Assembly (NCBI GenBank): GCA_016785015.1
Contig: JADHTJ010000001.1
Coordinates: 41,028-105,027 of the forward strand
Direction: 5' to 3'
DNA: 64,000 nt
DNA from: Anaerolineales bacterium
Lineage (GTDB): Bacteria; Chloroflexota; Anaerolineae; Anaerolineales; UBA11858
Below, piece after piece: positions 30,520 through 35,595 of the stretch. Each line of letters starts with the position of its first letter. Positions within the stretch are counted from its first letter, which is position 1. The notes under the pieces were generated by a model. It made no database searches and was not told the DNA's origin. It saw nothing but the letters and a program-made list of their open reading frames with translations. The position numbers were made by a program, and so were the translations under genes.

Positions 30520-30562
30520 AATATAATACAAATTAATCGGGGAGTCTTTGCGTTAAAGCAAA
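30520..30562 (-). promoter_or_regulatory. Promoter: Fnr-type palindrome plus -10 TATATT
   Basis: TTTGCGTTAAAGCAAA at 30547-30562; minus-strand TATATT at 30525-30520; palindrome centre to first -10 base = 29.5 nt. Confidence 0.75.
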
Positions 30563-30587
30563 TCGCACCATAGTGCCTTCTTAATTT

Positions 30588-31034
30588 TTAATAGGGCGGA
30601 TCCTCTCCCGTGTGGCATGAACAGCCCTTGTAATAAGCGGCGTCATTGTGGGCAGCGACATAAACGACTGTGTTGGGTTCGATATTCAGGTTACAGCCCT
30701 GGAAGAAAAGCGGGTTCTCATCGGCATCCAATGCCGCTTCAGCAACCTGCGCATCACAAGTGACGTAAACCACCCCACTCCAATCGTCGTTGCAGATCGG
30801 ATAATCGACCACTTTATCTACTTCCATCAGTTTGCCCTTGATTTCGACCTTTACCAGGGTTGAGGCTGTATCTGGAGCCGGGGTCATCAACAAATCAGTT
30901 AAATCCAAAGTGGCTCTGGGTGTGGCTTGCGGTGTGCAGACACTTTTACTGCGCTCGCAGGCTGCAAGAGAAAAGACGAATATCAGCGACAGTGTTATTA
31001 GCAATATTTGGGATCGTTTCATTGAATTCTCCAT
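30588..31034 (-). CDS. Cys-rich lipoprotein, GCSCH family, copy 1
   Basis: Lipobox FSLAAC; ICNDDWSGVVYVTCDAQVA, FFQGCNLNIEPNTVVYVAAHND, YYKGCSCHTGE. Confidence 0.85.
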   Translation of the reverse strand: MENSMKRSQILLITLSLIFVFSLAACERSKSVCTPQATPRATLDLTDLLMTPAPDTASTLVKVEIKGKLMEVDKVVDYPICNDDWSGVVYVTCDAQVAEAALDADENPLFFQGCNLNIEPNTVVYVAAHNDAAYYKGCSCHTGEDPPY

Positions 31035-31477
31035 CAGGGATTAAGAATCTGATAAACTTCGCCGGTGTGACAGGAGCAGCCCTTGTAATGAGGTGAGTCG
31101 TTATGGGCAGCAACGTACACTACGGCATTTGGATCAATATTCAGGTTGCAGCCCTCAAAGAAGCGTGAGCCTTCTTCGGGGTCCCACTCGGCGACTTGGG
31201 CATCGCAACTGACATAAACGGTACCGCTCCAATCATCGTTGCAGGTGGGATAGGTTACAAGTTTGTCGACTTCGATTAATTTGCCCCCAATTTCGACCTT
31301 TACAGGTTCTGGCGCTGGTCCTGGAGCGGAGGTGTTCTTGACGAGATCAGCTAATTGAAAGGTTGGTTTGGGGGTGCCCGCCTCGGGCGTGCAAACAGTT
31401 TTCTCCCTGTCGCAGGCGGAGAGCGATAAAGTGATAATTAAAATAAATGCCAAAAGCAATATCTTCGATTGCTTCAT
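31034..31477 (-). CDS. Cys-rich lipoprotein, GCSCH family, copy 2
   Basis: Lipobox LSLSAC; TCNDDWSGTVYVSCDAQVA, FFEGCNLNIDPNAVVYVAAHND, HYKGCSCHTGE. Confidence 0.85.
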   Translation of the reverse strand: MKQSKILLLAFILIITLSLSACDREKTVCTPEAGTPKPTFQLADLVKNTSAPGPAPEPVKVEIGGKLIEVDKLVTYPTCNDDWSGTVYVSCDAQVAEWDPEEGSRFFEGCNLNIDPNAVVYVAAHNDSPHYKGCSCHTGEVYQILNP

Positions 31478-31511
31478 TGATGAACTCCAAATAACTTCGC
31501 TTGATGTGTGA

Positions 31512-31554
31512 AATATATCTCAAATAAAATTTGGGGGCTTTGCTTTAACGCAAA
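31512..31554 (-). promoter_or_regulatory. Promoter: Fnr-type palindrome plus -10 TATATT
   Basis: TTTGCTTTAACGCAAA at 31539-31554 (exact reverse complement of 30547-30562); minus-strand TATATT at 31517-31512; same 29.5-nt spacing and same TATATTTCACACA. Confidence 0.75.
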
Positions 31555-31606
31555 TCAGAGGCTAAATACTCTAGCCTCTGATCAGGAATGATTGGAAATT
31601 CTCTTA

Positions 31607-32110
31607 TTAGTTCTCAGCAGGATAGCCGATATCGGCCAGCAGTTCCTTGATCTCTGCTTTCGTTGGGGATTTAATGAGTTCTACTACAGCTTGTTGGGCC
31701 GCGACATCCACATTGACTGAAGCCACCCCAGGGAGAGCGCCAATCGCCTGCTCGATTTTCATTTTGCAGTGAGCACAATTCACGGAAGGGATATCATAGG
31801 TCAGCGTAGTGAAATTATGATTTCCTATTTTCGAATTTGAAGCACCTTGTTGGCTCATCATGCCCATCGGGCTATTACTTCCGGTCATCCAGCGGAAAGC
31901 AAAGAACATCATCACCAGCATGAGCACCACACCCACCAGTGGGATGATCATCACGCCCCACATACCCAACCCCAAGCTGCCGCCGCTAGACATCAGCATT
32001 GCCATGGGGTTCATCCCGCCGAACATAAAACCAAAGGCGGCCATAAAAACGATCATACCAATAATCATTAACCCAAACATCACAGCGGGTTTCATGCGTT
32101 TGTGTTTCAT
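31607..32110 (-). CDS. Membrane protein with C-terminal heavy-metal-associated (HMA) domain
   Basis: N-terminal TM segments; PSVNCAHCKMKIEQAIGALPGVASVNVDVAAQQAVVEL. Confidence 0.88.
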   Translation of the reverse strand: MKHKRMKPAVMFGLMIIGMIVFMAAFGFMFGGMNPMAMLMSSGGSLGLGMWGVMIIPLVGVVLMLVMMFFAFRWMTGSNSPMGMMSQQGASNSKIGNHNFTTLTYDIPSVNCAHCKMKIEQAIGALPGVASVNVDVAAQQAVVELIKSPTKAEIKELLADIGYPAEN

Positions 32111-32168
32111 TTGGATATCTCCTTGGTTTACTTATAAATTATTTGTAACCGATCAACAATAGACCGGA

Positions 32169-32225
32169 TTATCCGAAAAAATGGTGTGCGTAGGGGGCTG
32201 CACCCCCTGCGCACACCATTTTTTC
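32169..32225. terminator. Long A/T-flanked hairpin (bidirectional terminator-like)
   Basis: CCGAAAAAATGGTGTGCGTAGGGGGCTGCACCCCCTGCGCACACCATTTTTTCGG. Confidence 0.6.
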
Positions 32226-32265
32226 GGGAGATTTCTTGTTAGGCTGAGTAGTCGCAATTACTCAT

Positions 32266-33845: not shown

Positions 33846-33901
33846 TGCTTAGCTCCATATGGAAATTATTCGAGTGTATTTCTAACGAGTGGAAGCTTTT
33901 C

Positions 33902-33954
33902 GGAGAAAGGGATGTGCGGGGGGGGGGGGAGCACTCCTGCACATCCCTTTCTCC
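33902..33954. repeat. Hairpin carrying a 12-G homopolymer
   Basis: CGGAGAAAGGGATGTGC-(G)12-AGCACTCCT-GCACATCCCTTTCTCCG; G-run at 33918-33929. Confidence 0.7.
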
Positions 33955-34006
33955 GGACTCTCTTAAACTGAAATGAAACGCACCCAAACTATTCTTGTAA
34001 ACCTAC

Positions 34007-34405
34007 CTATTTATGGCAGGAACATCCTTCATAGTATGCTTTATCGTTGTGCGCTTCCACGTAAACAACCGCACCGTCATCAATATCGAGATTGCAATCC
34101 TGGAAGAAAAAGGCCTCAGTCTCCCATGCCGCGATTTGGATATCGCAAGTCACGTAAACCGTTCCGCTCCAGGTGTCATTACAGACTGGGCCAGTGATGA
34201 CTCGATCGACCTGGGTTTCTTTACCCTTGATCTCGATCCAGGTTGGTGAGGAGTCCGCCTCAAGATCTGCTGCCGAAGTGATCTGCGTAAAGAGCGCAGG
34301 GTCATCCAGATAAGAGATACGTTCTGGAGGGCATTCTGCTTTACAGGCTGACAAAAGCAATGCCAGGAAAACCAACAGATAAGTTCTCATCGAAACCTTC
34401 CTCAT
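34007..34405 (-). CDS. Cys-rich lipoprotein, GCSCH family, copy 3
   Basis: Lipobox LLLSAC; VCNDTWSGTVYVTCDIQIA, FFQDCNLDIDDGAVVYVEAHND, YYEGCSCHK. Confidence 0.85.
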   Translation of the reverse strand: MRKVSMRTYLLVFLALLLSACKAECPPERISYLDDPALFTQITSAADLEADSSPTWIEIKGKETQVDRVITGPVCNDTWSGTVYVTCDIQIAAWETEAFFFQDCNLDIDDGAVVYVEAHNDKAYYEGCSCHK

Positions 34406-34582
34406 TCATAAATTAGAAAAATGCTCTAGCCGACAGGAGATATTATTAAAATGACTTGGCAAGAGTACCATTTAGGTAAGTGACAAATGAAATTCTTTAC
34501 ATCGTTCTGATACGGTGCAAAAATCCTGTTTGGTTGGCCGGCCCCCCGCCCGTGGCGCGACTTGTTTGGATTAGAGTTTGTA

Positions 34583-34624
34583 CAAAACAGGAGCCAAAGA
34601 TTGATTCTCTCCAGCTCCTGTTTT
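34583..34624 (-). terminator. Rho-independent terminator downstream of 34653-35507
   Basis: AAAACAGGAGC...GCTCCTGTTTT hairpin. Confidence 0.7.
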
Positions 34625-34652
34625 ATGATAGCAATATCTATACCATGTGCAA

Positions 34653-35507
34653 TTATTCCGCTGGGCCTGTTTCTGTTTCGCCGAGCAAGGCTTTCCTGGA
34701 AGCTGGAATGGTGAGAGAGACGATCAATCCCGCGCCCAACAGGGTCGCCACGATGAAATCAGAGGTGTTCATCCGGATAAAATGAGTCGGCAGATTGGCC
34801 ACTACGACAACGGAACCGGCGATCACACCCAACCACCAGCCAGACTCTTTGCGGGCGGCCAGCAAGGGTATAGCAATGATGCACAAGATCATAGCGATGA
34901 AGTTCATCGGTGCTTCCACCCCGTAGATGGCATGATCTAAATCAGTAAATAGGGGGCTCTCCGGGCGGTCCAGGATGCCCTTGAAACCGTGCATGGTCAG
35001 AACGTTGATATGGCCAGCCACGACGCCCAGGAAGGTGAAAGCGAAGAAGCGCGAGACTTTTTCGCCGCGCTCACCTTTCTTGAGCAGCAAGATTGTCCAA
35101 TAGGCTGCCAGCCCAACGAGTAGAATGATTACCGTCGGAGGAGGGCTGCCGATATGAACAATATACGGCAAAATTTCAATGACGGCAAAAATCGTGGGAA
35201 ACGAGATGCAGCTCAAAGCCACTGGCCAGGCCCAAGAATATCCTTTCCAAAGTGGGTAGACTGTCACAAGCAGCGTAGCGCTGGCAGCCACTGTAATCCC
35301 TAGCATGGCGACGAACCAGATCGCCAGCATCATGGGGGCCATTTCGAAATGTGGGTCTTCCACCATCAGGCGGACCAGCTTCCCCGCGAGGGTGTTGAAT
35401 GTGTTGCGGGCCAAGATCGGCACAACGAAGATGCCGAACAACCCAAACACCGCCGCTACAATGACGGCTGCCTTACGAGCCTTGGGTGTGAAATCAATTT
35501 CGTTCAT
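34653..35507 (-). CDS. Multi-pass membrane protein, unknown
   Basis: Start corrected to ATG 35507 (MNEIDFTPKARK, preceded by AAAGGAG). Confidence 0.7.
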   Translation of the reverse strand: MNEIDFTPKARKAAVIVAAVFGLFGIFVVPILARNTFNTLAGKLVRLMVEDPHFEMAPMMLAIWFVAMLGITVAASATLLVTVYPLWKGYSWAWPVALSCISFPTIFAVIEILPYIVHIGSPPPTVIILLVGLAAYWTILLLKKGERGEKVSRFFAFTFLGVVAGHINVLTMHGFKGILDRPESPLFTDLDHAIYGVEAPMNFIAMILCIIAIPLLAARKESGWWLGVIAGSVVVVANLPTHFIRMNTSDFIVATLLGAGLIVSLTIPASRKALLGETETGPAE

Positions 35508-35553
35508 TTTACATTCTCCTTTTGTGATTGTGATAAGATTAACGAGCGCATTC

Positions 35554-35595
35554 AGCATACCCAGGTTTTTCAATTGAGTCTTTTCCCTAAGGAAA
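35554..35595 (-). promoter_or_regulatory. Candidate Fnr-type promoter in the divergent 34653-35507 / 35611-36300 intergenic region
   Basis: TTTCCCTAAGGAAA palindrome at 35582-35595; minus-strand TATGCT at 35559-35554; spacing again 29.5 nt. Confidence 0.5.

What the first reader, a model, noticed from the sequence alone, without database searches (positions are those of the whole stretch)
30520..35595. Shared Fnr-type promoter layout: palindrome at about -41.5 in front of separate genes of one cluster
The 16-bp palindrome TTTGCGTTAAAGCAAA (30547-30562) and its exact reverse complement (31539-31554) each lie upstream of a minus-strand gene (membrane protein 29698-30477; GCSCH lipoprotein 31034-31477). 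Each is followed, after exactly 21 nt, by the same TATATTTCACACA. The distance from palindrome centre to the first -10 base is 29.5 nt in both, which puts the centre at about -41.5, the classical class II Crp/Fnr activating position. A third candidate upstream of 34653-35507 (TTTCCCTAAGGAAA, 35582-35595; -10 TATGCT at 35559-35554) has the same 29.5-nt spacing. Read as 5-4-5 half-sites (TTGCG-TTAA-AGCAA) these resemble an Fnr box with altered half-sites. Three Crp/Fnr genes are encoded nearby. This looks like a small regulon with a non-standard recognition sequence.
Basis: partly seen in the sequence, partly recalled or inferred. Interest (0 to 1): 0.82.

Follow-up and report, generated by a model that had tools for sequence, protein, structure and literature searches.

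The report
Paralogous Crp/Fnr regulators, swapped DNA boxes
Two genes in this Anaerolineales (Chloroflexota) genome share a switch, a DNA palindrome set at one fixed distance before the transcription start, that recurs across the whole order next to one particular Crp/Fnr regulator, while sister regulators use different palindromes at exactly the same distance, so evolution rewrote the recognised letters but kept the promoter geometry.

Summary
Both palindromes and the 21-nt spacing to TATATT are at the stated coordinates. A sister species has the same two promoters. Box plus -10 occurs in 22 of 399 genomes of the order, with no hits for the reversed control pattern and none in about 230 genomes outside the order. 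All 22 belong to the 91 genomes that encode one Crp/Fnr subfamily with recognition helix G[ST]TRE[MV]VCR; in this window that is 36291-36962. The same gene cluster without this regulator lacks the box.

TTTCC-N4-GGAAA belongs to a different paralogue (35611-36300, helix GTTPVMVCK), and 8 of 8 loci of that type carry it. Two further paralogue types carry CTTGAY-N4-RTCAAG and TTTATA-N4-TATAAA. All sit about 21 nt from the -10. Arg at helix position 185 goes with G at box position 5 (129/140 half-sites); Lys never does (0/24), and the Lys change arose twice.

Most TTTGC promoters also carry TGTGA-N6-TCACA centred on the -10, a likely repressor site for a further factor.

Best reading: an NnrR-like class II Crp/Fnr regulon, new to Anaerolineales, controlling an undescribed membrane redox cluster. 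Binding, effector and transcription starts are untested.

The parts
30547..30562 (-). Type-A Crp/Fnr box TTTGCTTTAACGCAAA centred at about -41.5 of the promoter of the membrane-protein gene 29698-30477
   Evidence: conserved with spacing in sister species and across the order
30520..30525 (-). -10 hexamer TATATT, 21 nt after the box
   Evidence: spacing peak at 21/22 nt in 117 loci
30515..30530 (-). -10-centred element TGTATTATATTTCACA (degenerate TGTGA-N6-TCACA)
29698..30477 (-). Target gene: membrane protein (MP29 family, no Pfam or NCBIfam match)
31539..31554 (-). Type-A box TTTGCGTTAAAGCAAA at about -41.5 of the promoter of lipoprotein gene 31034-31477
31512..31517 (-). -10 hexamer TATATT, 21 nt after the box
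31507..31522 (-). -10-centred element TGAGATATATTTCACA (one mismatch to TGTGA-N6-TCACA)
31034..31477 (-). Target gene: Cys-rich lipoprotein ending in GCSCH
30588..31034 (-). Second GCSCH lipoprotein, adjoining 31034-31477 and probably in its transcript
   Evidence: co-transcription inferred
36291..36962 (+). Type-A Crp/Fnr regulator (helix GTTREMVCR), predicted to bind the TTTGC boxes
35581..35596 (-).
   Evidence: conserved in sister species and in 8 of 8 type-B loci
35554..35559 (-). -10 hexamer TATGCT, 21 nt after the type-B box
34653..35507 (-). Target of the type-B promoter: membrane protein of the MP34 family
35611..36300 (+). Type-B Crp/Fnr regulator (helix GTTPVMVCK), divergent from 34653-35507, predicted to bind the TTTCC box
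25255..25270 (-). TGTGACTTAAATCACA, 21 nt before CACAAT, upstream of 24510-25145; a related class-II-like site for another Crp-type factor
20011..25145 (-). Rest of the conserved cluster: small membrane proteins (20011-20607, 24510-25145), haem O synthase-like (20652-21560), FGE-sulfatase family (21611-22564), haem-copper-oxidase-like 12-TM protein (22561-24150)
32673..33365 (-). Third Crp/Fnr gene (helix GTVPDVLNR); not associated with these boxes

Best explanation
The two TTTGC-NTTAAN-GCAAA palindromes are operators of the Crp/Fnr protein encoded at 36291-36962 (type A). As a homodimer it would bind at about -41.5 and activate the downstream promoters by the class II mechanism, turning on a Cys-rich lipoprotein gene and a membrane-protein gene of a conserved membrane redox cluster. 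The third palindrome is the operator of the sister paralogue 35611-36300 (type B), which acts in the same geometry on the neighbouring gene 34653-35507. In the order Anaerolineales these regulators form a family of at least four paralogue types. Each type has its own half-site and the same ~21-nt distance to the -10, so specificity diverged while promoter architecture stayed fixed. At many type-A promoters a further Crp-like factor probably represses by binding TGTGA-N6-TCACA over the -10. Shown by sequence: boxes, spacing, conservation, co-occurrence and helix-box covariation. Inferred: binding, activation, repression and the signal sensed.
For: Same two promoters in the sister species. Order-wide hits with no hits for the reversed control and none outside the order. 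All 22 box-positive genomes lie within the 91 of 399 that have the type-A regulator (hypergeometric 9e-16). Among genomes with the cluster's 12-TM gene, exact box plus -10 is in 21 of 81 with type A and 0 of 67 without (Fisher p 1e-6). In loci fetched mainly by regulator similarity, 69 of 95 type-A loci exceed the best null score against 2 of 22 others. The -10 lies 21 nt away in 37 and 22 nt away in 10 of 130 oriented box-like sites, against mostly 1-3 (maximum 6) at any other offset. In divergent regions A gives A 36, B gives B 8 of 8, C gives C 18, D gives D 5. The paralogue clades hold in a tree built without the recognition helix. 22 cluster loci without type A have no TTTGC box.
Against: No binding or transcript data. 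33 type-A genes have no box in their own divergent region by strict pattern; some of these have looser or distant sites. The published rule R180-G3 and E181-A6 (PMC1274295) predicts TGTGA for a helix with R180 and E181, which type A has. Box-positive genomes are related, so p-values overstate independence; about a quarter of the loci were first found by the box. Regulator and cluster may simply be co-inherited, although the 67 genomes with the 12-TM gene but no type A argue against that.
Confidence: 0.82

Rival explanations
1. The type-A protein binds the TGTGA-N6-TCACA element on the -10, as its R180/E181/R185 helix would predict by the published rule, and a different unlinked protein binds the TTTGC box.
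For: Helix RE-VCR resembles that of E. coli CRP; Rodionov et al. 2005 link R180 to G3 and E181 to A6; 44 of 59 type-A promoters carry the element at the same offset.
Against: TGTGA-N6-TCACA elements persist upstream of the same cluster in genomes without type A, and one lies in a promoter of locus L194, whose genome has no type A. The -41.5 box, not the -10 element, changes with the paralogue helix. Type-A variants [ST]SREVVCR have TTTGACTTAAGTCAAA at -41.5 and an unchanged -10 element.
Confidence: 0.1
2. All three palindromes are one degenerate box read by one regulator.
For: Same 29.5-nt spacing at all three; paralogues A and B are sister clades.
Against: The TTTCC form is found with helix GTTPVMVCK (or S/G for P) in 8 of 8 loci and the type-A box is never found in the divergent region of a type-B gene. 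The loss of G at position 5 is conserved in every type-B locus.
Confidence: 0.05
3. The palindromes act as operators for repression or for a non-Crp protein, or are chance hairpins.
For: No direct binding data; palindromes can serve many regulators.
Against: Fixed distance to a -10 across families, linkage to Crp/Fnr paralogues and helix-box covariation, essentially none expected by chance.
Confidence: 0.03

Closest known systems
NnrR regulon of alphaproteobacteria (motif ctTTGcgnnnncgCAAag, PMC1274295)
   Same: Crp/Fnr-family activator, very similar half-site TTTGC/GCAAA; the inferred target cluster includes a haem-copper-oxidase-like membrane protein, loosely like the nor genes of NnrR regulons.
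   Different: Different phylum and regulator clade, free bases at positions 6 and 11 with a conserved TTAA centre; no nir, nor or nos genes recognised in the window cluster by Pfam or NCBIfam; effector unknown.
HcpR1 (wyTTGACnnnnGTCAArw; P or S at 180) and DNR (CTTGATnnnnATCAAG), PMC1274295
   Same: Type-C paralogues have P180/E181 and the box CTTGAY-N4-RTCAAG, as the published rule predicts.
   Different: Types A and D have R180 and E181 and yet lack G3 and A6 in their -41.5 boxes, so the two-position rule does not extend to them.
E. coli CRP class II promoters and FNR promoters (own knowledge)
   Same: Dimer site centred near -41.5 with a -10 at fixed distance; -10 often extended (TGN).
   Different: Half-sites differ, and many type-A promoters carry a second Crp-like palindrome centred on the -10, about 32 bp (three turns) from the first.

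Membership tests
Crp/Fnr superfamily (regulators 36291 and 35611) | cNMP-binding-type sensor domain plus HTH_Crp_2 above Pfam cut-offs | tested here: met
Fnr proper (oxygen sensor) | Conserved N-terminal cysteines for a [4Fe-4S] cluster | tested here: not met
   Only conserved Cys is in the recognition helix in 95 type-A proteins
Class II Crp/Fnr-dependent promoter | Dimer site centred near -41.5 upstream of a -10 | tested here: met
   21-nt spacing peak, conserved in orthologues; the -10 is inferred from sequence
Class II Crp/Fnr-dependent promoter | Mapped transcription start and regulator-dependent activation | not testable with these tools
   Needs 5'-end mapping and reporters
NnrR | TTTGC-type half-site | tested here: met
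NnrR | Nitric-oxide response and control of nir/nor/nos genes | tested here: inconclusive
   No nir/nor/nos families recognised in the scanned cluster proteins; effector not testable
Published specificity rule R180-G3 and E181-A6 | R180 and E181 imply G3 and A6 in the site | tested here: not met
   Types A and D have R180 and E181 but T3 and mostly C6 or T6; type C fits
Haem-copper oxidase superfamily (22561-24150) | Pfam COX1 or PDB sequence match | tested here: not met
Haem-copper oxidase superfamily (22561-24150) | 12-TM fold like haem-copper oxidases | tested here: inconclusive
   AlphaFold model pLDDT 82; top PDB hits are cbb3, ba3 and NOR with Foldseek probability about 1.0, TM 0.5-0.6, E above 0.001

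The most novel reading that the evidence does not exclude
A local radiation of Crp/Fnr paralogues in Anaerolineales re-specified its operators while holding promoter geometry fixed. A single Arg-to-Lys change at position 185 twice removed the otherwise near-universal G at box position 5. The family evolved to control an undescribed respiratory membrane complex built around a new, very divergent haem-copper-oxidase-like protein, with a second Crp-type repressor site laid over the -10.
Probability: 0.4. Interest if true: 0.78.

Novelty: new variant of a known kind. Interest (0 to 1): 0.63.

Why it matters
A recent survey of the Crp/Fnr family reports that base-contact residues and core motifs are largely conserved (PMC12531629). 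Here is a compact natural experiment to the contrary: about 150 sequenced paralogues in four specificity types, many with their operators beside them at the same distance from the -10. It makes a rule testable (residue 185 and base 5) and shows that the existing two-residue rule misses whole clades. It also supplies a first regulatory handle on a widespread, unnamed membrane redox cluster whose 12-TM gene is found in 148 of 399 genomes of the order.

Tried and rejected
One box for all three sites: rejected because the third tracks another paralogue. Fnr-type oxygen sensor: no conserved cysteine set. Foldseek on the GCSCH lipoprotein gave no usable match. NCBIfam and Pfam give no function for the lipoproteins or the MP29 and MP34 families. 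Literature searches found no description of this regulon.
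Full report
Observation. The two palindromes, their exact reverse-complement relation and the 21-nt spacing to TATATTTCACACA are as described. The third candidate is also at the stated place with the same 29.5-nt centre-to--10 distance. In 100 Markov copies of the window no box with a -10 at 20-22 nt appeared. 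The genome, a 4.95-Mb assembly whose relatives are named Anaerolineales and other Chloroflexota, has only three TTTGCNTTAANGCAAA sites; the third has no -10 at that spacing.

Conservation. The sister species G001 has the same cluster with both TTTGC boxes, each 21 nt before TATATTTCACA. Scanning 399 genomes of the order for the box followed after 18-24 nt by TATNNT found 22 genomes, no hits for the reversed control, and almost always 21 or 22 nt. None of about 230 genomes from the rest of the phylum had it. Downstream genes are again and again the same few families: the GCSCH lipoprotein, the 29698 and 34653 membrane-protein families, and a lipoprotein with two repeats weakly like FmdE.

Which regulator. 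I searched the order with the Crp/Fnr protein 36291, not with the box, and fetched the loci; the sets also include the 19 larger loci first found by the box. Helices fall into types: A (G[ST]TRE[MV]VCR, window 36291), B (GTT[PSG]VMVCK, window 35611), C ([AN][ST]SPEVVCR and the like) and D (GTTRELVS[RK]). A weight matrix of box plus -10 puts 69 of 95 type-A loci above the best score in reversed sequence, against 2 of 22 others; both of the latter come from genomes that have type A elsewhere. All 22 box-positive genomes are among the 91 with type A (hypergeometric 9e-16). Among 148 genomes with the cluster's 12-TM gene, exact box plus -10 is in 21 of 81 with type A and 0 of 67 without. Twenty-two cluster loci without type A have no TTTGC box; where a Crp/Fnr gene lies nearby it is of other subfamilies, mostly GTVRDVLSR. 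These genomes share ancestry, so the p-values overstate independence.

Paralogues and boxes. In the region divergent from each regulator gene the box matches the helix type: A with TTTGC 36 (three more with a [ST]SRE helix have TTTGAC; 33 have none by strict pattern), B with TTTCC 8 of 8, C with CTTGAY 18 of 24, D with TTTATA 5. Spacing to the -10 is 21 nt, rarely 22, in all. A tree built without the helix region keeps A with B as sister clades and C with D as sister clades. Arg at position 185 goes with G at box position 5 in 129 of 140 half-sites; Lys, in type B and in part of type D, in 0 of 24. Position 5 was not required when picking these sites. Because the Lys change maps to two places in the tree, this is two events, each conserved over several genera, not 24 independent ones. 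Type C agrees with the published rule R180-G3 and E181-A6; types A and D do not (PMC1274295).

Second element. In 45 de-duplicated type-A promoters the bases around the -10 read TTGTGA-TATATT-TCACA. In 44 of 59 the match to TGTGA-N6-TCACA (two mismatches or fewer) starts exactly 5 nt before the -10; shuffled sequence gives 3% anywhere in an 80-nt stretch. It is 32 bp, about three turns, from the -41.5 box. Type C promoters have it in 43% of cases at varied offsets, type D none. It is degenerate at the two window promoters. Similar palindromes, several of them 21 nt before a -10, stand before the 24510 family (window 25255-25270) and persist where type A is missing. I take it as the site of another Crp-type factor, probably repressing by covering the -10; this is inference.

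What is regulated. The cluster encodes a haem O synthase-like protein above its NCBIfam cut-off (20652-21560), an FGE-sulfatase-family protein, and a 12-TM protein (22561-24150) with no Pfam, NCBIfam or PDB sequence match. Its AlphaFold model (pLDDT 82) has as its top hits haem-copper oxidases, cbb3, ba3 and NOR, with probability about 1.0, TM 0.5-0.6 and E values just above 0.001. It has eight invariant His in 33 sequences, including HxH at 244/246 and 394/396. The lipoproteins end in GCSCH here but in GCxxCH, a haem c motif, in several relatives. A respiratory or nitrogen-oxide role is plausible but untested.

Mechanism and verdict. Best reading: type-A dimers activate from -41.5 (class II); paralogue B does the same on the next gene with its own half-site. 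Shown: sequence, spacing, conservation, co-occurrence, covariation. Not shown: binding, activation, effector, starts. Closest known are NnrR (motif) and HcpR1/DNR (type C). It is a new variant of a known kind, with more interest as an evolutionary experiment than as a single odd promoter.

Noticed in passing
window 30515-30530, 31507-31522; type-A promoters of loci L013-L169: A Crp-like palindrome TGTGA-N6-TCACA centred on the -10 hexamer in 44 of 59 de-duplicated TTTGC promoters, 32 bp from the -41.5 box; candidate repressor site of another factor.
   Followed up: partly
window 25255-25270: TGTGACTTAAATCACA 21 nt before CACAAT, upstream of 24510-25145; comparable TGTGA-N6-TCACA sites precede 28 of 55 homologues and also occur in genomes lacking the type-A regulator.
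   Followed up: partly
window 22561-24150: 12-TM protein with eight invariant histidines and no Pfam, NCBIfam or PDB sequence match, whose predicted fold resembles haem-copper oxidases; in 148 of 399 order genomes.
   Followed up: partly
window 31034-31477, 30588-31034, 34007-34405: Three paralogous lipoproteins end in GCSCH (CxCH), while relatives have GCxxCH, the haem c attachment motif; possible altered or lost haem site.
   Followed up: partly
L054, L060, L061, L064, L067: Related clusters add a lipoprotein of two tandem repeats weakly like FmdE and a NapH-like polyferredoxin, some under the same type of promoter.
   Followed up: partly
L069, L060, L061, L121: Type-D regulators with Arg at 185 have hybrid boxes (TTTATA on one side, TTTGAC or TTTGCA on the other), possibly an intermediate specificity.
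   Followed up: partly
window about 33475-33570; L003 about 2175-2280 and 2375-2480; L196; L200: A dispersed hairpin repeat (GGGAATTRCYGTGAGAGACMTCACATT ... GTGGCCCCTTACCACGGCGATTCC) recurs between genes across this genome, like a REP or MITE family.
   Followed up: no
G000 C141:1437-1452 (L003): Third exact copy of the palindrome, among genes for small peptides with GG-type leader ends, without a -10 at class II spacing; probably chance.
   Followed up: partly
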